Shown here: piece after piece, positions 6,456-60,249 of the stretch
How positions within the stretch are numbered: the first letter of the stretch is position 1
Layout: each line of letters starts with the position of its first letter
Source of the DNA: Scytalidium lignicola
Taxonomy: Eukaryota > Ascomycota > Leotiomycetes
Reading direction: 5' to 3'
DNA length: 64,000 nt
Assembly (NCBI GenBank): GCA_002812745.2
Contig: NCSJ02000046.1
Span: 62,001 to 126,000, forward strand
Notes under the pieces: generated by a model
Told to the model about the DNA's origin: nothing
Database searches by the model: none
What the model saw: the letters and a program-made list of their open reading frames with translations, nothing else
Translations under genes and position numbers: made by a program

Positions 6456-9400
6456 TCATTGCCTCCTACTAGAATGATCCGGCGTCTCGAGAAGACCGCC
6501 AATATCTAGTCGTCCTGGCCGGTCGTCTCTACGTCGCGACGGGTCTCCTAATACCTCTTCTCCACGTTGGTCACGGATGGGTGGTAACTGAAGATCATGT
6601 TGGATTTGCGCCTGCGCTGATGTGGCCTCATTTCGTCCTGGCTGATAAGGCGCCTGACTCTGAGAGTAATCCATCCGCGGTTGCCCTTGGGATTGGGCAA
6701 AGGATGAAGGACCTGCTGAAGGGGACACATTCGATCCAAGGGTCGGAGGAGCTCGATAGGCCATCACTTCTCCCCGAGGATCGGCGTATGACTGGCTGGG
6801 AATATATGGGGATACACCTGGATTTGGAGGATACACCTGCTGAGCGGTTTGGTAACCGTATTGCGGCTCTCTGGAATATGGGTCTCGTGAGAATGGTGAA
6901 GGCACGGGCTGGTGATACGCCTGTGGAGTTGCTGGTACATGCAATACAAGGACAACGAAATAGGTGGATTCTTTCTTTGCAAGGCCAAAGTGGACCTGAA
7001 AGGTTCTCTGCTGTCCATCTGGTCCTTGGAATGTGAAAACCTCGGGTCGGTCTGTCCTAAACTGGGCTACATCCTCGGGCCCAAAACCTACGGACTGGAT
7101 GACTCGGTCCTCCTCGAACTTGAGGTAAATTGGCGGTAAATAGCTTGGTTCTCTTTCACGTCGCTCATCCTCAAATACCCTCTGCAGTCGGAATGCCTTG
7201 TCGCGGTCTGCTGGGCTGACCAGGTCATGAAATGGACGGCCCACTACAGATTGTCCACCGAGTGCTTGACCAAAAGCAGGAGTTGATTTTGCTATCTGCA
7301 AATCCATGGTCAAATATGCCAAGGCTGGCTCTCGCCCTGATAGTGGGCGTGCATTTGAGGCAACTGTCCCAGGCGCTGAATACATACCAGTATCTCCTGG
7401 CGATGCCTGGTCAAAATATCTGGGCACAATCGGACCGCCGCCTTGTGATTTCAAGACCCTGTAAGGACCAGATCCCTGGCCATCAGCAAATCCCTGTTGC
7501 ATCTGAGCTTCATTGACCGAATACAGCGACAGGGGCCGCCTCATTGAAGCATCAGAAGGACCAGGTGGGTAGCCAGAACCTTCATATCGTGGCTCCCGTT
7601 CATCTCGCAATCGTGGCCGTCCTCTCTTCTTATGTTGCACGTCAACACACGTATCCTCCTTTCCGTTGCTCATACATCGAGAACATGGGCGCTGTGCTGA
7701 GAGAAAAGTCAGTCAACCAGCATGGTAAAAGCAGACATAAGAAAAGCCGCCGTGCAGTTTTGCATGTTGCAAAAAACTAGGCAATCTAGGGCTGGTCTTG
7801 TAGACTCATGTCACCAAACTTGAACGTCTAGTTCTTGAAGCACTTTTCATGAACGATGAGATTCTTTGGGCAAAACTTCCCAAATTAAATTCAAGGACCC
7901 CCCTTTTTTAAAAAAAAATTTTNAAAAAAATTCCACAATATCGCTGCCCTGCGACCAAATCTTTGTTGCCATGTGTTGGATGACGCATGACCTTCGTTTC
8001 CCAGAACGAGTGTGTGGCCCAGTTTGGCGATCAGCCACAGTTGAATTGTGGACAGCAGCCCGTGGCACGCCTCTTTCAAATGATTGGGGGTTGATGGCTA
8101 AGCTTAGAGAGCATCTAGGATCCTTGTCCAAGTCTTTGTCACATTCATTATTTTCCAAGAGGATAGGATAGGATAGGATAGGGAGAAGATCGCGCAGGTC
8201 ATACCCAGGTGATTGGGATACGCACAAGTCCAGCAGTGTACTGTAGTAGCACACCAGTGTCCTGTTGTTCAGTGAGCTGCAGGTCCCTGGCGCTCCTTGC
8301 ATCATCTCCCTCTGGGTTTTCCGTCAGGGCAAGCCACAGGCTGGTGCGATCCCGCCAATCGGGCCGGCCACCCCGCTGTGACAGGGCCTTGGGCCTTTGG
8401 GGGCGATCGCCTTTGCCTGGCGTCGCTCTCGCCGAAAAACCGAAACCCATAATTTTCACACCGCCGCCAACTGCCCTGGCCCCGGCAGGAACATTGGCAA
8501 ACTCGGGAACACACTTAGGGAGCACCAATATCGCCACAACATTATCGCTGCATGATGGCAATCCAACCTCCCTATCATCACCACAGATACCACGGGCACG
8601 TGGCTTTTAGATTATCCTGCTCGCTTGAGCGGAGCACCGTGCGTATCGACAGCCGCGTAGAAGTTCTAGATCTACCTTAATCACCACCCCTTCCCCTGCT
8701 TCATACGGACTCCCGCAGTCGCACCAATGGGGAAATAAAATGCACTTGCTGCTGAACGTGTTCTGCAGACCAGATGGAGACCAGGTGCGATCTTGGCGCA
8801 AAATGAAAGAAAAGGAGAAGTTTCAAAAAGTAAAAGGTTTTGAGGGCTGCACAATGTATAATAAATGTGTATGCGCGAGCGACCAAAAAAAATCAACATA
8901 TATCGCGATCTGAAGCATGAGAATGCAAGGACGTACCGTCGCATCTGCACATACGGTTAGCATCCTTACTATCTGCCAAAGCAAAGGGGAAAGTCCAAAA
9001 TAATCATTACTGTGCCCACTCACCTAAGATGCGCCCTCTTGCAAGGTACACAGGCTGAGGCTACATGCCCTTTGGTCTTCCGTTGTGCTTTTGGCGAAGG
9101 ATAGCCGGTTGGCTCCCCAATTGCTGCTCTATCTGATGTGGAATACCCCGCTGGCACCTGTTCAGAATGTGGTGCATACGAATGCCGCTCAGGAGGCATA
9201 TGTGCTCGCTGCTGCACTTGATATTGCGCTGACTGAACGTCCCCCATGGATAATGAGGAATAGGATTGCGGTGGGTGGGTCTCTTGTTGGTATGGCCTCA
9301 TAGATGCCATGCTATTATCAGACCGTTCTGATTGAGGTGTATGGTTCCCACGAAACATGTCTTGTCCAGTTGATCCATATCCCCCATAACCGATCTCACT

Positions 9401-9598
9401 TGAATCTGGGTTGTGACTTGGCGGGCGTGGTGGAGATCCTGACATGGGCGGCGAGGGGTATGCCCGTGAAAGAGCACTATCAGATGCCGCTCTAGTCCAA
9501 CTCAGATCAAGAGGTAGTCTTGCTGCCAGTTGTAAAGGTTCCCTTAGCCCACTAACCGAAATATTCGAATAATCAGTGCTGGAGGATATTGATTGCAT
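6456..9598 (-). CDS. Zn2Cys6 transcription factor with PAS-like domain
   Basis: Fungal-type binuclear zinc-cluster regulator, 607 aa. Exons are 9024-9598, an 8-nt microexon 8937-8944, and 6456-7696; introns are 79 nt and 1,240 nt. Joined, they give a canonical cluster: Cys183-x2-Cys186-x6-Cys193-x5-Cys199-x2-Cys202-x8-Cys211, followed by a basic patch HKKRGRPRLRDERE. The exon sum is 1,824 nt, divisible by three. The N-terminus is Ser/Pro/Gln-rich (AYPSPPMSGSPPRPP). After the cluster a PAS-like region is suggested by FGQALGGQSVVGRPFHDLVSP through KKESTYFVVLVLHVP, roughly residues 325-440. The C-terminus is Pro/Gln/Tyr-rich and disordered-looking, probably an activation region. The overall plan resembles fungal cluster-plus-PAS regulators, but I cannot name the target pathway. 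An upstream 5' exon is possible. Confidence 0.85.
7697..8936 (-). other. Unusually long intron (1,240 nt) inside the zinc-cluster coding sequence
   Basis: The donor is GTACGT (rc of 8931-8936) and the acceptor CTCTCAG (ending at 7697). Exon and phase logic demand a splice here: the residues before and after form one zinc cluster. The intron is about twenty times the usual length in this window. It holds a GGATA tandem tract (about 8161-8181), one N (7923) in an A/T run, and a GC-rich block at 8280-8500 with overlapping open frames on both strands that I cannot assign. Confidence 0.7.
8161..8181. repeat. GGATA tandem repeat
   Basis: Four perfect copies of GGATA followed by a partial copy, within the long intron of the zinc-cluster gene. 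Simple microsatellite. Confidence 0.8.
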
Positions 9599-46135: not shown

Positions 46136-49100
46136 TTACATATTAGCCAGCTCATTATCAATACCTCTGTCCAAGAATGCCTTTCTCTCTCCAATAAGCT
46201 CCGTCTGTAACCTCTGTTCTACTAGAGCACGGACTTGCTTCTTGGTCACATTATCTAGATCAACCTCCCTCAAGCAAGCTCTAATTGCGTCCATAATGAC
46301 CGCATCATCAGGTCCATTGGTGGAGCGCTGGAAATCAAAGCCTGACTGTGGTCGCGCGCCAAGACCAAGAGTTGAGGCGCGGGGTCCTGGGGAGGTGGAA
46401 GGTGGGATGCCACCAAGTAGATTGGATGTTGAGAGGCTGTTAGTACTCTGGTGTGCTCCAAGTTGATGTGTGCTTGCGCGTGGATTATCTTGGTATGGGG
46501 TGTATTGCTCCTGGAGACCTCCACCAAGCGACAACATAGATTGACGCATTTGCGGGTTATCGGAGTACGGAGTATTTGAGTATACGGTCTGTCGATTGTT
46601 GCCACCGAATGGAGCTGGTGATTGAGGAGGCATGTATGGACCTGCGCCACGGCCTGGGAAGCCGGTAAGGACGGTGGATGCAGGTTTCACGGACGAGTAC
46701 ATGGATCTCATGTCATCCATCTCATAGTAATCGTCATAGCCACCGTTGTAGCCCTTCTCAACCTGGATACCACGACGACCTGGGAGATTGTTTGCCATGG
46801 CGTAGTCGTCCCATCGCTGAAGTGGGATGCTTCGTGGGTCGAAGCCTTCGTCATCGATAGCAATTACCTGCTTACCTCCCTTTTCACCAACCACGATACG
46901 TGTGTTACCCCAAGAGAAATTGTCTTGGTTCCAGAATGAATAGACAGGAAGGACAAATGAGTAAATGGGGAAAGCCATGAGGTAAATGATCATCCATCCG
47001 ATGTGTTGCCATTGGCGTCTAAGAATAAAGATGAGGGCCTGGAGACCGTAGACGGCTGCTAACAATACAATCGAAATGATGGGGAATTGACCTTGGTGAG
47101 CTGCAAGTCGGTAGATGAGATAGGCGAGATAGGAACAGGTGGCGGGGAGGATGATTGTACCGAAGAGATCGATGAAAACGACGAATCTCATACTGAAACA
47201 GCAGAAACCGCACATTTCCTCAAGCCAAACCAATTCAGCCAAGTTGTGGATGGTAGAGTTGATCCATCTTCTTCTCTGGGAGAGCAACACACTCCAGGTG
47301 TCAGGAGCAGCGGTGCTAGCATAGGCATCGGGAATGAACTTGTATGACATATATGGAAAGTGCTTGGTCATCAGGGTCGTCAGGTAACGATCTTCACCGA
47401 GAGACAGAAGATTCTTCTTGTGTAGAGTATCAACGTTACAATCACTGTATTCACGAATCACCTCATCCGAGATAATCAGTGGCTTGCCCTTGTCAGCAGT
47501 TCGGAGACGGTACATGGAGAAACTGGGGTTATCAGGTTAGCAACAGGCTGCCGAGACAGGAAGAGTTTAAGGGGTTAAAAAGACTTACCAACCAGGCAAA
47601 CAAGTAACACTGCCAAAGAGAGACTCGAAAGCCTTAGACAAGTGATGGGAAATGTAGTATTCGTAAACCTGGATCATAGTCCACCAAGACCTATCCTCGT
47701 TCTCAAGACTCGTCTCTCCACAAATGCCAGCGATCTTAGCATTATTGGCACAGGCGGCAACCAGACGATTGAGCGAGTCTTCTCTGACGCTAGTATCGGC
47801 ATCAACCATCAAGAGATATTCGTACAGTTCAGGATCCACCCCGATAATATTGTTAATCTGATGGAACATTTCTAATTCAAGAGGATTCATTGGTGCTCGA
47901 TGGTGAACACGATTAAGGAAGCTCATAAGTAGGATCTGGGAGTCACGCTTTCCACGATTTCCGGGCTTGGTTTTGCTTTGCTCGGATTCCTTGCCGACTT
48001 TCACTATGACCAGGTATGGAACGACATTGCCTTCATATTCGTAGAGACCTGAGTAAACTTTGCCGTAGTTGAGCTGATCACTGCTTTCACCGACAGATCT
48101 GAACGGAAGAGCGGGAGGGTCCATCTTTGGATCAACTCCAAGGATATCCAGGACAATCTTTGGCGTAGGTCTGTCATTACCACCTCCGACAATCATACCA
48201 TCGCAGATGACGCAAATCAGCTTTCTCTTATTGTCGTATTGGAGAGCGGTCAATGAATCGAGTGCTTTTCGTAGAGAATCTTCTCCTTCAGTATACGCTG
48301 GAACCTGGCAGATGACAAACTTGTCTTGTGGAGCTGGTCGGCGTTTCGATCCAAACTGCAATGCAGCCAAGAATTTAACAAGAATAACTGCACAGATAAT
48401 AATGGTGAAAGCAAGTAAGAAGTAGTTGTTGAATTGACATCTGACGCTTTTCCTGAAATCTGGAATTCCGACGTAGAAGCGGTTTAGGAAACAGTTCTCG
48501 GTATTCTGTATCAGAGCTCCGTAAGTCGAGTTGGCAGTGGCCAGGTTCTGGTCCCACTTATGCGAAATATCGAGGCCTGGATTATCCTTGATCAATTGAG
48601 AAATGGTTGGGTCGAGGAATGCAAACTGTGCTAGGTTGTTTTCGAGTCCCAGCGTGTAGAAGTAATCCGTTAGATCGAAGATCTTCCCGTGAAGGATGAA
48701 CCAGTCATGGTTATTATTTTGACCATCAGACTCAACTTGGCCCTTCTTCGTGACCAGATCGCCCTTGTAGTATTCCTTGATACTAGGTAAGAAGGTATTG
48801 GGATACCAGTCAATATTGTAGAGCTTGCTGGTCCTGTACGGCTGTAGGGGACCACTCAGGTGAATTGCATTCGGATACAAAACAGTGTTGTTTGGCTGAA
48901 GTGCGAGAGTTGAATCCGCAGGTATTACACCTTTACAGGCGAGCGTGAGAGGTGGCTGGAAATACTCGTCAAGATTTAAGCCTGCAAACGGCTGCATGTT
49001 GGCAGTGTTGGTTTGAATAACCGTATCACTGTGCTGGAGCTTCCAGAACTTCGAGATGTCATAAACTTTGCCATGGATGCTGACCCAAAAGTCATTGTCA

Positions 49101-51615
49101 CCTTGATGGGTCGACACTTCTGTCTGATCCCAGGCCTTGTCAAAGTTCGGACACAATAATTTTCCAAACTCTACGATCCAGAAAACGATGACACCATTGA
49201 TCAAGAAGATGATAAAGACCAAGACCACTTTCTCTCGCCATGCCATTCGAACATCTGGACGTTTCATACGGCCAACATACCGAAGGGCAAATGAAGGAAT
49301 CCAGAAGGTTAAGGCCCAGACAACGGCAACCCAGACGCGACGACCCTTTGAAACGGTTTGGGTGGTCATGTTCTTATGTCCAACTTCGGGGTCCAGTTCA
49401 TTAACAAAGTCTCCAATTTCGTCGTTGAAGAACACCTGGCCCTTTTGCTCATCACCTTTAAGACCTAAGCCGTAATCCCCATTGCTTGCCATCCGAGATT
49501 GATTCATCATTGAGCGTGCTCCTAACGCACTTTGGGATCTTGCGGCTGGGTTCATTTGTGCATCCAAGAGTTGATCTCTGCTTCCTTGTGGAGTCAAGTC
49601 ATTCATTTGGCCAAAGAAGCCACTTGCGTTGGGATTAGCACTTGAGTAGCCTGTGTCCATGGCTGGCTGATCCATCATAGAGCCAGGCCCAGTGAATGGA
49701 TTGATAGGCTTGAGATCGAGCATACTCTCAGCTTCCCACCAGGCGCTTTCTCTGATCCATATACGCTCTTTGCCGATAACGACCTCTCCATTGCTCCAAC
49801 CCCGCTCCGTAATCCAACTTTCAATTCCATCTTTTCCGTCTTTGCAGCCAAGTAATGCATATCGCTGAACGAACTCGTCGTAATCAAAGTCTGCAGTGAA
49901 GTCAAGATTCTTGTTCCTGCGGTTTGACCATTCTGGTAGGCGCCATGCCCTCAGCTGTCGAGACACAGCACCTGCAGACCATGCGGAGGTTGTCGATGGA
50001 AGTCCGGCAAGACTTGCTGATGGGTCATCTGTGGGATGGAGCGACAGGTGATACCAGACTCGACTGCTGCCAATGACATTAGCCAAGCTTATCCTGCCAG
50101 CTCGTCCCAGGTTTACGCCTTGTCCCTCAACTGGGAACAATAGTTTTCTCAAGATGGCGTCCTCCTCAGCCTCTAGTCCGACTTTCTCCAGCACAGTTTC
50201 ACGCCGTTCCCTTTCGTGCTCACGTTCGCGGCCAGACGGACCCGACATGATCCCAAGATCCGGCGCTACCTCATTTACAGCATTTTGCATCTCTCGCAGA
50301 ACAGAAGATCCAGCTTGGACCACTTCAACACCGTCCTCTTTCATTTCGGCATTGATACCCTGAGTATCGTCGAAGACACCACGCATTGCAGCAGCTTTGC
50401 CAAGAGTTGGGTTTGGGACCTCTAAAACAGTGATGCAAACCGTATCACTGTTATCCTCATCGGTATTCGGTGTTCGAGCACCAACACCACCTTCGTCGGA
50501 GTCGGCCTCCAGAATTCTTGCCATGTCGACCAGGATAGCCTCATTTGCCTTAACAATGATCCAGTCGACCAATGCCTCATAGATACCTCCGATGAGCGTC
50601 TCTCTCTCAGCCGAGGAGCACTGCTTCTGAAGCATATCGGGCTCGACGCCTAACAATCCTCCAACGTCTTCACAGATAGTTTCCAGCTCATCCTCGTCAA
50701 CTGCAAAGCTAAGGGTATCACCAAGCTTCAATAAGCCAGCCAGGACAGAGATCAAATTTCGGTGATCTGCGCCTTTGACTCCAATAGCCTTCAAAGACGC
50801 TCTAAAATCGTCCGCTGCAGCGGCATCATCTGCAGTTGGTAAAAAGGATGGAGGGTCGTATGTGCCTGATTTTGAGAGTAGAGTGTAGCTGGAAGCATGT
50901 TTCAGTCCCAGGAACTCTCTTTCAGCAGGAGTGGAGGCGTTGGTCAGCAGATAGTAGAAGACATCGAATGCTCTGTATCCTGCTTCGCTGGGGATGTTGA
51001 GGAGGCCCTTGGAGGTATTAATTCCGCCTTCCGACAAAGCCAATGTTGCTGTGGTGAGATTGCCTGCTAGGGACATGGTTAATGTGACACCGAGAGCAGT
51101 ATGTTGAGGGGCCGTCGGATTGTGCGGGGAGACACAGTAGATGAATGGTCGTAAGACATTCAGGGCTGTGAAAAGAGCTGGTGGAAGGTTCAAGGGAAGA
51201 GTTGAGAGGAAGGGAACGAGAACTGAAGGTGTAGACTCGTGGAGAGATCTGGGTGGGATGAGTTAGCATATGCCGCAGAAATTATCATGATCAGGGTGAT
51301 TTACCCCAAGAGGATGCAGCCATCTTCGGCACGTCGTCTTGCGTGTTCCCACGCTCGAGATGCCAGGGTTGTGTCGACGGTACCTCCAACTCGGCCTTCG
51401 TGATCTGGCTGAGAGACGGTTAACCAGGAGTTCATGACCAAACTCGTGCTGGCATCTAGCGGAAACGGTTGACCGGAGGTGTAGATCGTATGAACCGCAT
51501 TCAGCAACGTAGTCGTTGAGACCTGCGTTGATTGTTGACCTGGAGCATTTCTCATGCTACCTATTCCTCCTGCTGAGTTCACCGAGTACATCGACATTCT
51601 GTTGTTGGAAGCCAT
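46136..51615 (-). CDS. csmB: Chitin synthase with short myosin-motor-like domain (class VI/VII, CsmB type)
   Basis: Plasma-membrane family-2 glycosyltransferase polymerising UDP-GlcNAc into chitin, 1,785 aa. Exons are 51305-51615, 47589-51248 and 46136-47522. The N-terminal region is a reduced myosin-like domain; where the class V neighbour has a P-loop, this one reads [19 protein letters not shown], so ATP binding is not expected. Membrane segments ([39 protein letters not shown]) flank a cytochrome-b5-like region ([20 protein letters not shown]). Catalytic blocks are [43 protein letters not shown] and QRRRW (near residue 1406), followed by several transmembrane helices. A DEK-like C-terminus ([20 protein letters not shown]) ends the protein. 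The last intron splits the CLPGC motif. Symbol is by analogy to the Aspergillus csmA/csmB pair. Confidence 0.93.
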
Positions 51616-54501: not shown

Positions 54502-57500
54502 ATGTCGTTGCATCTCACCACTGGAGGGGCTCACTCACAGCCTTCTCTTCCTTCCTTACCAGCACATCTTCAATCGGACACTCACATCACCGCACACCTG
54601 GCCAGTCGATTCCATGTGTCCTTACCAACGGCACTGCTCTCTGCACATGCATTAATTTCACTCAACACTTACACATCCTCGACCAAAGGCCCAGATGGCG
54701 GAAAGGAAGGTAGTGCTATGGGAGGAGCAGAAGACCTGGCCGACCGAGCTTGGACCCGACTAGGAGCACGCTCGGAAAATCAAGCTGTTGTATTTTTGTA
54801 AGCCGATGTTTTCAATCTAACAAGCAGAGCCATAGGAAAGTGATTGTGCTAACAACAGTCCTCAGGGGCGAGTCCGGCTCGGGTAAGACTACAATCCGTG
54901 CGCATCTTCTTACTGCGCTCCTCAATAAGTCGTCAACACCATTATCTACCAAACTGTCTCTTGCTTCATATGTTTTCGACACGCTCACTACGACCAAGAC
55001 CGCCACCACCCCCACAGCATCAAAGGCGGGTTTGTTTTACGAATTACAGTACGATACGGCCTCGAGCGTCAGTCCAACCCTCATTGGTGGAAAGCTTCTC
55101 GACCACAGATTGGAGAGGAGCAGAGTGACCGAGGTCCCAACCGGAGAGCGAAATTTCCATGTTCTCTACTATCTCTTAGCCGGCACGAGTGCTGCTGAAA
55201 AATCACACTTGGGCATTGATTCCCCCGGACTCATCTCTGACGGCAACTATGTGGGGAACCGAAATTCACAGGGAAACCAACACAGACGGTGGCGGTATTT
55301 GGGACATCCAACCCAATTGAAAGTTGGTATCAATGATGCCGAAGGATTCCAGTTGTTCAAGACTGCGCTGAGGAAGTTGGAATTCCCACGAAGTGAGATT
55401 GCTGAGATCTGCCAGGTCTTAGCAGGTATCCTTCACATTGGACAACTCGAGTTCGAGGTTACGCATGATACGACCGTCACCGGAGATGACAGCGGTGGCT
55501 TCTCACACGAAGGTGGTCAAACTGTCACTGCTGTCAAGAATAAGGAAGTCTTGCAAATCGTTGCTGCTTTCCTTGGAGTCAGTGCTCAGGATTTGCAGAT
55601 AACTCTCGGCAATAAAACCAAGATCCTTCACCGAGAGCGTGTCACTATCATGCTTGATCCTAAAGGTGCAAGAGCAAATTCGGATGAGCTTGCCAGGACC
55701 CTTTATTCCCTCTTAGTCACTTACGTCATGGAATCCATTAACCAGCGTGTATGTGCCGAGGAGGCGGCCATCTCCAACACTATTTCTATTGTCGACTTCC
55801 CAGGATTTGCTCAGCAAGCCTCTACCAGTTCGGTGTTAGATCAGCTGTTGCACAATACCGCCACCGAAGCCCTATACAACTTCACCCTTCAAAGCTTCTT
55901 CGACGGGCCTGCGGAGATGCTCGAGAGCGAAGAGGTGACTGTGCCAGCTAACACCTATTTTGATAACTCCGATGCCGTCAAGTTGCTTCTTAAGTCTGGA
56001 AATGGCCTTCTTAGCATTCTTGACGATCAGACTAGGCGGAACCGGACTGATCTTCAGCTTTTGGAGAGTTTGAGGAAGCGTTTCGACGGTAAAAACCCTG
56101 CCATCACTGTTGGCAGCGCAACTGCAAAGCTTCCTGGCAGCAACTTCGCCACTCATAATACTGCGGCAGCCTTTACCGTGAAGCATTTCGCCGGAGAGGT
56201 AGATTACCAAGTTACTGGGCTTGTCGAGGAGAATGGAGAGGTTATCTCCGGCGATCTGATGAACCTGATTTCTTCCACCAAGAGCGACTTTGTCGCTAAA
56301 CTCTTTGGTTCGGAAGCTGTCCAAAAACAGGTCCATCCCCAAGAACGCACAACAGTCATGCAGGCCCAAGTCAGCTCCAAGCCTCTGCGAAAGCCCAGCG
56401 TTATGCGACGGAAAGGTGACCGCCCAACCAGAGCTGGTGCTCGCGCTGCCACAACCGATACATTTGATGAAGCCAGCGAAGATGGGATCTCGGAATCGAG
56501 AAGTAAAAAGCATAGCAATCAAGGAGCAGCGGGCCAGTTCCTCTCTTCCCTCGACAATGTTATCAAATCTTTGACTGCGCCCAATACCAACCCATACTTT
56601 GTTTTCTGTCTCAAGCCTAATGACCGCCGCATTGCGAACCAATTTGATAGCAAATGCGTCAGGACACAAGTTCAAACGTTGGGCATCGCGGAGATCAGCC
56701 AGAGATTGAGAAGTATCGACTACAGCATCTTCTTGCCTTTCGGCGAGTTCCTGGGTCTTTGTGAGGCCGAATCTATCATTGTTGGTAGTGAAAAGGAAAA
56801 GGTCGAGATGGTGTTGGACGAGAAGAGATGGCCAGCCAATGAGGCCAAGGTTGGCAACACCGGAATTTTCCTGAGCGAACGCTGTTGGTCTGAAATCGCC
56901 AAGCTAAGTGAGAAGGGCTTCGTTCAAGGTCGGTATCCCGCACCGTCCGACGATGGTGAAGGTGGATTGACACCGGGTGGAGATAATGGCGGAGGATACG
57001 GAACATCTAAAGAGCGTCTACTCCAAGGGCAATCTCCTGGGGATTTTGCTTATGGAAACGACAAGAAGTCAGGATACTTTGGCAGTCAGGATATCGATGC
57101 TCGGTCTGACGCTGGAGCGTCTGCTCTTGGCCAAGGCGATATGTTCAGAAATCTGGATACTCGAGCCCAGATGGCAGAGAAAGGTAACGAAAAGACCATG
57201 GTGGAGGTTGAAGAAGTTGAAACCAGTTCTAGCCGAAAGAGATGGCTCCTTATCGTCAATACTATGACTTGGTTGATCCCTGACGCCGTGATTCGAATGG
57301 TTGGCCGTATGCCTCGAAAAGACATTCGAATGGCATGGAGAGAGAAGTTGGCCATCAACATGATGATCTGGCAGAGCTGTCTATTCGTTGCTTTTATGAT
57401 TGTCATCTTTCCACTTCTCCTCTGTCCTCGCCAGCATGTTTACAGTCCCGCTGAGCTAACGTCACACGATGGTAAACATGGCCATTCAGCTTATGTTGCT

Positions 57501-60249
57501 ATTCGAGGAATTGTCTTTGACCTGGGCGATTACGTTTCGTCTCACTATCCAAGAATCATTCCTGAAAAATCCCTTCTTGCATATGCTGGTCTTGACGCTA
57601 CTTCGCTTTTCCCAATTCAGGTTTCAGCACTCTGTCAAGGAACGTCCGGATCGATTAATGAATTTGTTCAGTTGGATTACACCAATACCAATACATCTGG
57701 CTCTGCACAAGTTATATCTGCAACCGATACCAATCCGAAGTATCACGATTTCCGTGCTTTCACAAATGATAGTCGACCAGATTGGTTTTACGAGCAGATG
57801 CTCATGCTGAAAGCTGGCTATAAAGTCGGAAATGTTGGATATACGGCAAAGTACCTCAAAACTTTGGCTAACAAGCAAAGTTCTATCGCCAGCTTGAACG
57901 GCCGCATCTACGACTTTACCAATTACGTCACAGGTGGTCGCCGTGTTGTGGTTCCCCAGGGCAAGCCAACGCCATCGAATGTAAACACCGATTTCATGAA
58001 TCAGTTAGTTGTTGACCTCTTCCAGCAGAAATCCGGAGATGATATCACAAAATACTGGAATGCCCTTGCCTTGAGCACAGACGAGCGTCAGCGTATGCAA
58101 ATATGTCTTGACAATCTCTTTTATGTCGGTAATGTCGATACAAGAAACTCAGTGAAATGTCAGTTCTCTGAGTATCTGATGCTGGCTGTTTCTATTGTCC
58201 TTCTCAGCGTTATTGGATTCAAGTTCTTGGCAGCTTTGCAATTTGGAGGGAAGAATATTCCTGAAAATCTGGATAAGTTCATCATGTGCCAGGTCCCTGC
58301 TTATACCGAAGACGAGGATTCTATCCGTCGTGCCATCGACTCTGCCGCTAGGATGAAGTATGATGATAAACGCAAGCTTTTGGTTATTGTTTGTGATGGT
58401 ATGATTATTGGTCAGGGTAACGATAGGCCTACACCACGCATTGTCCTCGACATTCTTGGAGTTTCCGAAACCGTCGATCCTGAACCGCTGAGCTTCGAGT
58501 CTCTAGGCGAGGGAGCTAAGCAGCACAATATGGGTAAGGTCTACTCTGGTCTCTATGAGGTCCAAGGTCATATTGTACCCTTCTTGGTTATTGTCAAAGT
58601 AGGTAAACCATCCGAGGTTACTCGTCCCGGTAACAGAGGCAAGCGTGACTCTCAAATGATCATGATGCGATTCCTCAACAGGATTCACTACAATGCACCA
58701 ATGAGTCCTCTCGAACTTGAGATGTACCACCAGATCCGCAACATCATCGGTGTTAACCCTGCATTTTACGAGTACATGTTGCAAATTGATGCCGACACTG
58801 TAGTCGCTCCCGATTCAGCATCGCGAATGGTTTCCGCCTTCTTGGACGATACAAACCTCATTGGGGTCTGCGGAGAGACAGCTCTTACGAATGCAAAGTC
58901 TTCCTTTATCACCATGATTCAGGTCTACGAGTACTATATCTCTCACAATCTTTCCAAAGCCTTCGAAAGTTTGTTTGGCAGTGTCACTTGTTTGCCAGGT
59001 TGTTTCACCATGTACCGCATTCGAGCTCATGATTCTGGGAAACCACTTTTCGTCAGTAAAGAAGTCGTGGAAGGCTATTCAACAATTCGTGTGGACACCC
59101 TTCACATGAAAAATTTGCTTCATTTGGGAGAAGATCGATTCTTGACAACATTACTCTTGAAACATCACGCCAAATACAAGACAAAGTTCATCTTCGACGC
59201 CCATGCTTGGACCATTGCACCTGATTCCTGGAAAGTCTTCCTGTCACAACGTCGTCGTTGGATCAACTCGACAGTTCACAACTTGGTTGAACTTATACCC
59301 ATGGACCAACTTTGCGGTTTCTGCTGCTTCAGTATGCGTTTCGTTGTCTTTATTGATTTGCTTTCAACAGTTATCCAGCCGATCACTGTTGCCTATATTG
59401 TCTATTTGATTGTTACGATCGTTCGAAACCCATCTAGCATTCCAATCACAGCATTCATTCTTTTAGGTGTCATATATGGTCTTCAGGCCATTATTTTCAT
59501 CCTTCGACGGAAGTGGGAGATGGTAGGTTGGATGTTGATGTATATCGCTGCCATCCCTGTCTTCTCTTTCGCTCTTCCTTTGTACAGTTTCTGGCATATG
59601 GACGATTTCTCCTGGGGTAATACTCGTGTTGTTACTGGAGAGAAAGGTCGTGCCGTTGTCATTACGGATGAAGGAGTGTTCGATCCTTCATCTATCCCTC
59701 ACAAGAAATGGGAAGAGTATCAAGCTCAGCTGTGGGAAGGACAAACCCAACGCGATGACCGCTCAGAAGTTTCAGGCTACTCCTATGCCACAAAATCTCA
59801 TTATCCTCAGTCTGAATACAACTATCCCGCTTCCCGCCCAATGTCGCAAATGCCTTTACCCAGCTATCCATATGATGCCCAAGCACCTAACCTCTACAAC
59901 TCGACATCGCGCATGTCTCTTGCGCCATCGGAAATGGGTAATGTGGCTCGCATGTCACATTTCGGCGGTAGCCAACATGAGCTCGAGATGGCGAATCTAG
60001 CAGGCTTACCCAACGATGATGCTATCTTGGCAGAGATTAGGGATATTCTTAAGACGGCTGATTTGATGACTATTACGAAGAAGAGTATTAAACAAGAGCT
60101 GGAGAGACGTTTCAACGTCAATTTGGATGCTAGAAGGGCTTATATTAATTCTGGTATGTGCTTTTCATATCCTAAATCCTATTAGCCTTTGATATATTTG
60201 ACTAACCTGCCCTCTAGCTACCGAAGCCCTCTTATCTGGTCAGTTGTAA
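54502..60249 (+). CDS. csmA: Chitin synthase with myosin motor-like domain, class V (CsmA type)
   Basis: Family-2 glycosyltransferase making cell-wall chitin at hyphal tips and septa, 1,871 aa. Exons are 54502-54797, 54866-60153 and 60218-60249. The N-terminal motor-like domain (to about residue 750) has a full P-loop GESGSGKT (100-107) and switch-II-like IVDFPGF, and ends with [20 protein letters not shown], typical of myosin heads. Two hydrophobic segments near residue 860-930 precede a cytochrome-b5-like region ([20 protein letters not shown]). Catalytic blocks: [46 protein letters not shown] (near 1560). Further membrane helices and a C-terminal DEK-type domain ([20 protein letters not shown]) follow, ending [13 protein letters not shown] via the small third exon. 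In this family the motor domain binds actin and localises the enzyme. Head-to-head with the class VI/VII gene. Confidence 0.95.

What the first reader, a model, noticed from the sequence alone, without database searches (positions are those of the whole stretch)
7697..9023. Zinc cluster built across an 8-nt microexon
Coding sequence stops after CKRAHLR at 9024 and resumes with QRPCSRC at 7696. The only join restoring a perfect Zn2Cys6 motif uses an 8-nt exon (8937-8944) encoding part of Arg-Cys-Asp-Ala, bounded by good AG and GTACGT sites. Skipping it would remove the third cysteine and shift the frame, so microexon inclusion could act as an on/off switch for DNA binding.
Basis: partly seen in the sequence, partly recalled or inferred. 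Interest (0 to 1): 0.75.

Follow-up and report, generated by a model that had tools for sequence, protein, structure and literature searches.

The report
Conserved 8-base exon completes zinc cluster
A fungal gene regulator gets the third zinc-holding cysteine of its DNA-binding domain from an exon only eight bases long; relatives in two fungal classes show the same arrangement, which automatic gene finders often miss, but whether the exon is ever switched on and off is unknown.

Summary
On the minus strand a Zn2Cys6 gene runs as exon 1 (9598-9024), a 79-nt intron, an 8-nt exon (8944-8937, ATGCGACG), a 1,240-nt intron and exon 3 (7696-6456): 607 aa with a Zn cluster and a predicted PAS fold. 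The organism is Scytalidium lignicola. Five joins restore the bare cysteine pattern, but only this one has ordinary splice signals. No orthologous fungal DNA was reached, so I read splice sites from run-on proteins. All 120 listed exon-1 relatives (of 383 hits, length-limited search) keep the sequence exactly to AHLR; 70 stop there, as AG|GTGA/GTAA donors predict; several then show the 8-nt exon, in Leotiomycetes and Sordariomycetes. The deposited S. lignicola model and, in all, 24 of 37 named non-Sordariomycete models break the cluster. The 'switch' is untested: no transcript data, and no skip product among 307 fetched proteins. I favour mostly constitutive inclusion through intron definition. 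The precedent is a 20-nt microexon in the GAL4 domain of Trichoderma Xlr2, reported as glucose-dependent (PMC11121469).

The parts
9024..9598 (-). Exon 1: start codon to first two bases of Arg192; carries Cys183 and Cys186 of the zinc cluster
   Evidence: in 9 aligned sequences (this one and 8 homologues) M1, Q2 and residues 172-192 except 188 are invariant
8945..9023 (-). Intron 1, 79 nt, phase 2, GTGAGT...GTGCAG, branch-like GCTAAC at 8961-8956; read through it gives an immediate stop (AG G|TGA)
   Evidence: 70 of 120 listed exon-1 relatives stop at the same residue; exposed intron-1 lengths 49-94 nt in 11 relatives
8937..8944 (-). 8-nt microexon ATGCGACG: last base of Arg192, Cys193 (third zinc ligand), Asp194, first base of Ala195
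   Evidence: same-type exon readable in relatives
7697..8936 (-). Intron 2, about 1,240 nt, phase 1, GTACGT...CTCTCAG, branch-like CTGAC at 7712-7708; single match in the genome, GC-rich middle, one N at 7923
   Evidence: lower bounds of 454, 379, 307 and 290 nt in four relatives
6456..7696 (-). Exon 3 with stop: Cys199, Cys202, Cys211, basic KKRGRPRLRD stretch, PAS-like domain, low-confidence C-terminus
   Evidence: YAG acceptor signature in 15 of 15 unnamed run-on relatives
6939..7325 (-). PAS-like fold (residues about 319-447)
   Evidence: AlphaFold2 pLDDT mostly above 90 over model residues 124-252, one block of ten at 73; the 50 PDB matches shown are PAS-domain proteins, the first at E 2.3e-5; Pfam PAS_4 in 3 of 33 aligned proteins, best E 7.6e-7, none for this protein itself

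Best explanation
This is a real gene for a Zn2Cys6-PAS transcription factor in which two introns lie 8 nt apart inside the zinc cluster. Each intron is recognised by its own donor, branch site and acceptor. The short first intron leaves first, so the 8 nt become the end of a long exon; then the long second intron leaves and the cluster C-x2-C-x6-C-x5-C-x2-C-x8-C is complete. Inclusion is probably constitutive or nearly so, and any splicing failure (intron 1 kept, intron 2 kept, or the exon skipped) truncates the protein before the cluster is finished. By parsimony the arrangement dates at least to the common ancestor of Leotiomycetes and Sordariomycetes. Shown: sequence, splice-like signals, conservation as read from proteins. 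Inferred: order of splicing, constitutive inclusion, DNA binding, age.
For: Exons, signals and motif. Exon-1 search: 120 of 120 listed relatives (of 383 hits; the search's length limit admits only proteins of about 106-336 aa, so it is the exact end point, not the shortness, that counts) match to AHLR; 70 stop there; the next residue in the other 50 is always one with a codon that can start with T (GT donor) or C (GC donor, e.g. RQV = AG|GCAAGT). The microexon can be read after intron 1: RCDG[T/M] in P0122, P0137, P0163, P0164, P0171, and Q[M/V]R[R/W]YV in P0139, P0147, P0187. Same-species pairs: unnamed P0147 is 100% identical to P0090 (Hypomontagnella submonticulosa) over exon 1 and runs through a 58-nt intron into the exon, while P0090 reads AHLRCDAQRPC; P0128/P0014 (Monilinia fructicola) and P0134/P0010 are further pairs. 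Exon 3: in the list all 15 unnamed proteins that have QRPCSRC without AHLRCD have I, V, T, L or P and then A before it, as a YAG acceptor requires (P0031 and P0096 look alike and may not be independent). Of 124 fetched proteins with C..CK.AHL outside the exon-1 search, 113 have CD at the microexon site. Full clusters in one ORF on short Logan contigs (P0034, P0266, P0303) look like transcripts that include the exon.
Against: No transcript of S. lignicola was seen. Conservation is read from proteins, not DNA, and only the 120 best hits of each search were listed. Eleven of those 124 proteins lack CD, with other joins (P0001, P0003, P0004, P0012, P0013, P0027, P0037, P0118, P0270, P0279, P0296); I take them for faulty models but did not prove it. 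Of 15 named proteins with QRPCSRC and no AHLRCD, 8 do not have A before it and 3 carry CD on a shortened exon 1. Intron 2 is long here and in several relatives, which a purely neutral account does not explain. The related Xlr2 case was reported as regulated (PMC11121469). One clade has no introns here.
Confidence: 0.75

Rival explanations
1. Regulated switch: inclusion of the exon is controlled by conditions (carbon source, stress), so that active DNA-binding protein is made only when it is included.
For: Skipping, or keeping either intron, gives a truncated protein (for skipping; the others from the sequence); the arrangement is kept across two classes; intron 2 is long in several lineages; Xlr2 in T. 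virens has a 20-nt microexon in its GAL4 domain reported to be left out with glucose (PMC11121469).
Against: No skip product (AHLST) among 307 fetched proteins, though most of these probably come from DNA. Intron definition needs no regulator. In Xlr2 itself no reads joined exon 1 to exon 3.
Confidence: 0.17
2. Two transcription units: a promoter inside the long second intron makes a short PAS-only protein without the zinc cluster, beside the full-length form.
For: Many relatives are held as exon-3-only proteins, e.g. P0007 in Xylogone beside P0140; intron 2 is long; Xlr2 was reported to make a short form.
Against: Exon-3-only entries are what gene finders make when they miss the exon. Met203 at the head of exon 3 is Met in only 6 of 150 relatives with RPCxRC. 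The Met before RRP is not fixed: 19 of 29 scored proteins of my non-Sordariomycete set and 10 of 22 of my Sordariomycete set have it.
Confidence: 0.08
3. The deposited model is right: exon 1 joins a roughly 350-nt exon inside intron 2 and no zinc cluster is made.
For: NCBI protein P0001 (B7463_g3451, partial) has the same exon 1, then 115 residues encoded at 8570-8226 inside intron 2, then RPCSRC.
Against: 113 of 124 fetched proteins with the first half of the cluster (P0001 among the 124) have CD at this site.
Confidence: 0.01
4. Assembly error: the introns or the 8-nt exon come from bad sequence.
For: 18 single Ns in the window, one inside intron 2 next to a low-complexity A/T run.
Against: No N within 800 nt of the microexon (nearest 9816 and 7923); relatives show the same junctions.
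Confidence: 0.01

Closest known systems
Xlr2 microexon, Trichoderma virens (PMC11121469)
   Same: Microexon inside a Zn2Cys6 (GAL4) domain, missed by gene models, with truncated annotated proteins; canonical splice sites conserved in its genus.
   Different: 20 nt encoding PCRRCE (cysteines 4 and 5 by position; my reading) against 8 nt encoding cysteine 3 here; Xlr2 has PF04082 and a putative transmembrane segment, this protein a PAS-like fold and no PF04082 match; Xlr2 has RNA-seq and RT-PCR evidence of glucose dependence, this has none; microexon conservation reported there within Trichoderma, here across two classes.
AcuK/AcuM (Rds2/Ert1) Zn2Cys6-PAS regulators
   Same: Zn2Cys6 cluster followed by a PAS domain (PMC12719309, passages); some relatives are labelled ERT1 by their depositors (P0084, P0251, P0269, P0273).
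   Different: Orthology not established; a basic block, mostly KKRGRPRLRD, follows the cluster in this group. I did not compare it with an AcuK or AcuM sequence.
Other fungal microexons: P450 genes of Phanerochaete (PMC1184071, passages), Tuber nank genes (cited in PMC3689799, one passage), S. pombe (cited in PMC11121469)
   Same: Very short exons in fungal genes.
   Different: Not reported in a zinc cluster in the passages I saw; those of Tuber are described as codon-sized and alternatively spliced, this one is 8 nt and frame-breaking.

Membership tests
Fungal Zn2Cys6 (Zn_clus) proteins | Six cysteines in the binuclear pattern, over the curated score | tested here: met
   PF00172 27.4 bits against 21, for the spliced product; exon 3 alone has no Pfam match
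Microexon (very short exon between two introns) | Internal exon of at most about 30 nt with canonical sites | tested here: met
   8 nt between GTGCAG and GTACGT; same type in relatives; no RNA evidence
Xlr2-type microexon switch | Microexon in the GAL4 domain | tested here: met
   against PMC11121469 section 2.4
Xlr2-type microexon switch | Inclusion depends on growth condition | not testable with these tools
   no RNA data reachable
Xlr2 orthologues | Fungal TF domain PF04082 | tested here: not met
   Pfam finds only Zn_clus up to E 1; PF04082 is not among the 11 families found in the 33 proteins of A2
AcuK/AcuM (Rds2/Ert1) | Zn2Cys6 plus PAS domain | tested here: met
   PAS fold by model and Foldseek; PAS_4 in 3 of 33 aligned proteins
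AcuK/AcuM (Rds2/Ert1) | Orthology to AcuK or AcuM; role in gluconeogenesis | not tested
   no AcuK or AcuM sequence compared; depositor labels only

The most novel reading that the evidence does not exclude
The 8-nt exon with its long second intron is an ancient splicing switch, kept since before Leotiomycetes and Sordariomycetes split, that decides whether a PAS-domain sensor protein carries a DNA-binding domain, so that condition-dependent splicing gates a whole regulon in much of the filamentous ascomycetes.
Probability: 0.13. Interest if true: 0.8.

Novelty: new member of a known kind. Interest (0 to 1): 0.5.

Why it matters
It shows that a regulator found in two large fungal classes is often mis-annotated: 24 of 37 named non-Sordariomycete models in the list lack an intact cluster, so surveys of regulators based on those models would miss it. 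It extends fungal microexons from a Trichoderma case to a deeply kept, frame-breaking one at a zinc ligand, and gives a clear place to ask whether filamentous fungi use microexons as switches: one RT-PCR would go far to answer it. It also shows that run-on proteins from intron-blind gene calling can be used to read splice sites when genome DNA is out of reach.

Tried and rejected
Rejected: chance restoration of the motif as evidence (97% of 300 controls also restore a bare cysteine pattern). Repeat or transposon origin of intron 2: the only genome match is itself (a search that skips simple repeats and very common words), no Rfam match up to E 0.5, only short tandem repeats. Conserved internal start for a short form: not supported. 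Paralogue with the same structure in this genome: none found; the five other hits share at most 38% over the cluster region, and the loci fetched for them show clusters in one frame.

Led nowhere: viral-contig scan for fungal DNA (30 stretches matched a pattern, none a relative); PDB sequence search (three weak Zn-cluster matches, best E 0.13); papers on Zn2Cys6 with PAS (abstract of PMC11708020 and passages of three papers, nothing on this gene; no 'exon', 'intron' or 'splic' in the main text of PMC12719309). Searches for this microexon in print; from the listings only Xlr2 was comparable. Text seen: PMC11121469 abstract, sections 4, 12, 16, 41 and passages; PMC1184071 and PMC3689799 passages; PMC11708020 abstract and passages; PMC4855978 and PMC12719309 passages; the rest as listings only.

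Weak points of my counts. The exon-1 search admits only short proteins by its length rule, so '120 of 120' is not a share of all orthologues. The +1-frame class (6 tails) includes three that merely end in QM, and 0.72 such matches are expected by chance; the in-frame class (10 tails against 0.054 expected) includes five that begin with CD directly, which may be spliced models, transcripts or lost intron 1; the CDE form (P0175) was added to the pattern after I had seen it. The tally of 111 clusters fixed R, C and D in its pattern and so says nothing about their constancy; one search repeats it with those places open (113 of 116 with the normal spacing have CD, 114 the cysteine). The 19 proteins with I, V, T, L or P before AQRPC are 15 unnamed and 4 named ones (P0004, P0012, P0013, P0024); 3 named ones with CD (P0011, P0017, P0032) were set aside. 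The two sets were sorted by me from the names; P0120 (ncbi, no name) and P0110, P0114 (Colletotrichum, both full) were left out. The full-cluster pattern misses P0244 and P0245, which read CKNAHLRCDVMRPC and CKYAHLKCDEMRPC. The 11 relatives with exposed intron-1 lengths include the three QM-ending ones. Intron-2 lengths in relatives are lower bounds, and 12 of the 16 read upstream of exon 3 are 121 nt or less.

Full report
What is there. The window lies in a 46.9-Mb genome of 664 contigs. The protein of the finding matches a deposited Scytalidium lignicola protein, B7463_g3451 (P0001), at 100% over 68% of its length (exon 3), and the first 191 residues are identical too; the species is a leotiomycete. 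On the minus strand the gene reads: exon 1 9598-9024, intron 1 of 79 nt, exon 2 of 8 nt (8944-8937, ATGCGACG), intron 2 of 1,240 nt, exon 3 7696-6456 with stop, 607 residues. Both introns have ordinary signals: GTGAGT...GCTAAC...GTGCAG and GTACGT...CTGAC...CTCTCAG. The product has C183, C186, C193, C199, C202 and C211 in zinc-cluster spacing and scores above the Pfam cut-off. C193, the third ligand, comes wholly from the 8-nt exon.

Is it more than chance? The bare cysteine pattern is easy to restore: five joins do so here, and 97% of 300 resampled interiors give at least one. Requiring a good donor, acceptor and branch site leaves only the 8-nt exon; 2% of the controls give any, and none gives HLRCDxxRPC.

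Conservation, read from run-on proteins. I reached no fungal DNA other than this genome (a viral-contig scan gave none). But the protein collection holds ORFs that look as if called without regard to introns, and such ORFs run across splice sites. Searching with exon 1 alone (nine aligned sequences) listed 120 of 383 hits. The tool's length rule admits only short proteins here, so what matters is where they end. All 120 carry C..CK[KR]AHLR, and 70 end exactly there. That is what AG|GTGA or AG|GTAA gives: AGG then a stop. In the other 50 the next residue is Y, Q, F, C, S, L, H or R, all with codons that can start with T (GT donor) or C (GC donor; RQV is AG|GCAAGT). Beyond the first intron several show the microexon: five in frame as RCDG followed by T or M (P0122, P0137, P0163, P0164, P0171) and three in the next frame as Q[M/V]R[R/W]YV (P0139, P0147, P0187), consistent with CAG|[A/G]TGCGA[C/T]G|GTAYGT. 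P0187 is Lasiosphaeria hispida, a sordariomycete. P0147 is identical over exon 1 to P0090 of Hypomontagnella submonticulosa, also a sordariomycete; it runs through a 58-nt intron into the exon, whereas P0090 has AHLRCDAQRPC. Xylogone sp. PMI_703, the most similar named relative over exon 1 (83%), has two models: P0140 ends AHLRCDGTS, as exon 1 plus microexon plus the start of intron 2 would, and P0007 starts inside exon 3.

On the other side, 15 unnamed proteins of the list have QRPCSRC without AHLRCD; in all 15 it is preceded by A, and that by I, V, T, L or P, as a YAG acceptor demands. Of 15 named proteins of the same kind, 4 fit this, 3 carry the microexon's CD on a shortened exon 1, and 8 show other joins. 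Among 124 fetched proteins, outside the exon-1 search, that have C..CK.AHL, 113 have CD at the microexon site and 11 do not. The 11 include two Fusarium models (P0270, P0279) although another F. fujikuroi entry, P0265, reads RCDAQ.

Exceptions. P0092 and relatives P0241-P0246 carry the whole cluster in one ORF, on contigs of up to 169 kb, so at least one unnamed clade has no introns here. Whether it lost them or never had them is open.

Mis-annotation. The deposited S. lignicola protein fills the gap with 115 residues encoded at 8570-8226 inside intron 2 and loses the third cysteine. Of 37 named non-Sordariomycete entries, 13 have an intact cluster and 24 do not; of 36 Sordariomycete entries in my set, 35 do.

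The rest of the protein. Model residues 124-252 of exon 3 fold with high confidence into a PAS-like domain; the 50 PDB matches shown are PAS-domain proteins. Pfam PAS_4 matches 3 of the 33 aligned proteins, but not this one. Zn2Cys6 plus PAS resembles AcuK/AcuM regulators, described in PMC12719309 (passages), and some relatives are labelled ERT1 by depositors; I did not test orthology. No close paralogue turned up in this genome.

How it works. In fungi with short introns the intron is the unit recognised (established knowledge, recalled; the S. pombe paper on intron definition, cited within PMC11121469, was not held). Intron 1 is short, 79 nt here and 49-94 nt in 11 relatives, so it can be removed by itself, after which the 8 nt are part of a normal exon. 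No regulator is needed, and constitutive inclusion is my preferred account (0.75 for the whole statement). What it does not explain is intron 2: 1,240 nt here, and at least 454, 379, 307 and 290 nt in four relatives (the others give lower bounds too small to tell).

The switch. Skipping shifts the frame and ends the protein 18 residues after HL. That makes the exon necessary, not regulated. None of 307 fetched proteins contains AHLST, the skip junction, but these probably come mostly from DNA. The precedent is Xlr2 of T. virens: a 20-nt microexon in the GAL4 domain, seen without glucose and not with it; there, too, no reads joined exons 1 and 3, and the annotated proteins were truncated (PMC11121469). 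Xlr2 is a different gene, with PF04082, which is not found here.

Verdict. A conserved, frame-breaking microexon in a zinc cluster, real on comparative evidence; a new member of a known kind; regulation open.

Noticed in passing
window, 18 positions incl. 5107, 6393, 7923, 9816: Single Ns scattered through the window; one lies in intron 2 beside a low-complexity A/T stretch, so that intron's exact length is uncertain.
   Followed up: partly
46136-51193 (-) and 54750-60185 (+): Two divergently oriented myosin-motor chitin synthase genes (Chitin_synth_2, Myosin_head, Cyt-b5, DEK_C), the first split into two ORFs.
   Followed up: no
8160-8182: AGGAT tandem repeat (4.6 copies; pyrimidine-rich CCTAT-type on the coding strand) inside intron 2; it could belong to a promoter, untested.
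   Followed up: no
P0092, P0241-P0246: Intron-less clade of the same gene, with diverged copies P0244 and P0245 whose clusters read CKNAHLRCDVMRPC and CKYAHLKCDEMRPC.
   Followed up: partly
P0128, P0012, P0146 and others: Run-on tails RQV and RHV after AHLR suggest GC-AG donors (GCAAGT, GCATGT) for intron 1 in several relatives, including Lachnellula and Monilinia (for P0012).
   Followed up: partly
P0016 and P0008: Leptodontidium sp. has a second, diverged copy (756 aa) with an intact cluster beside one whose model lacks it.
   Followed up: no
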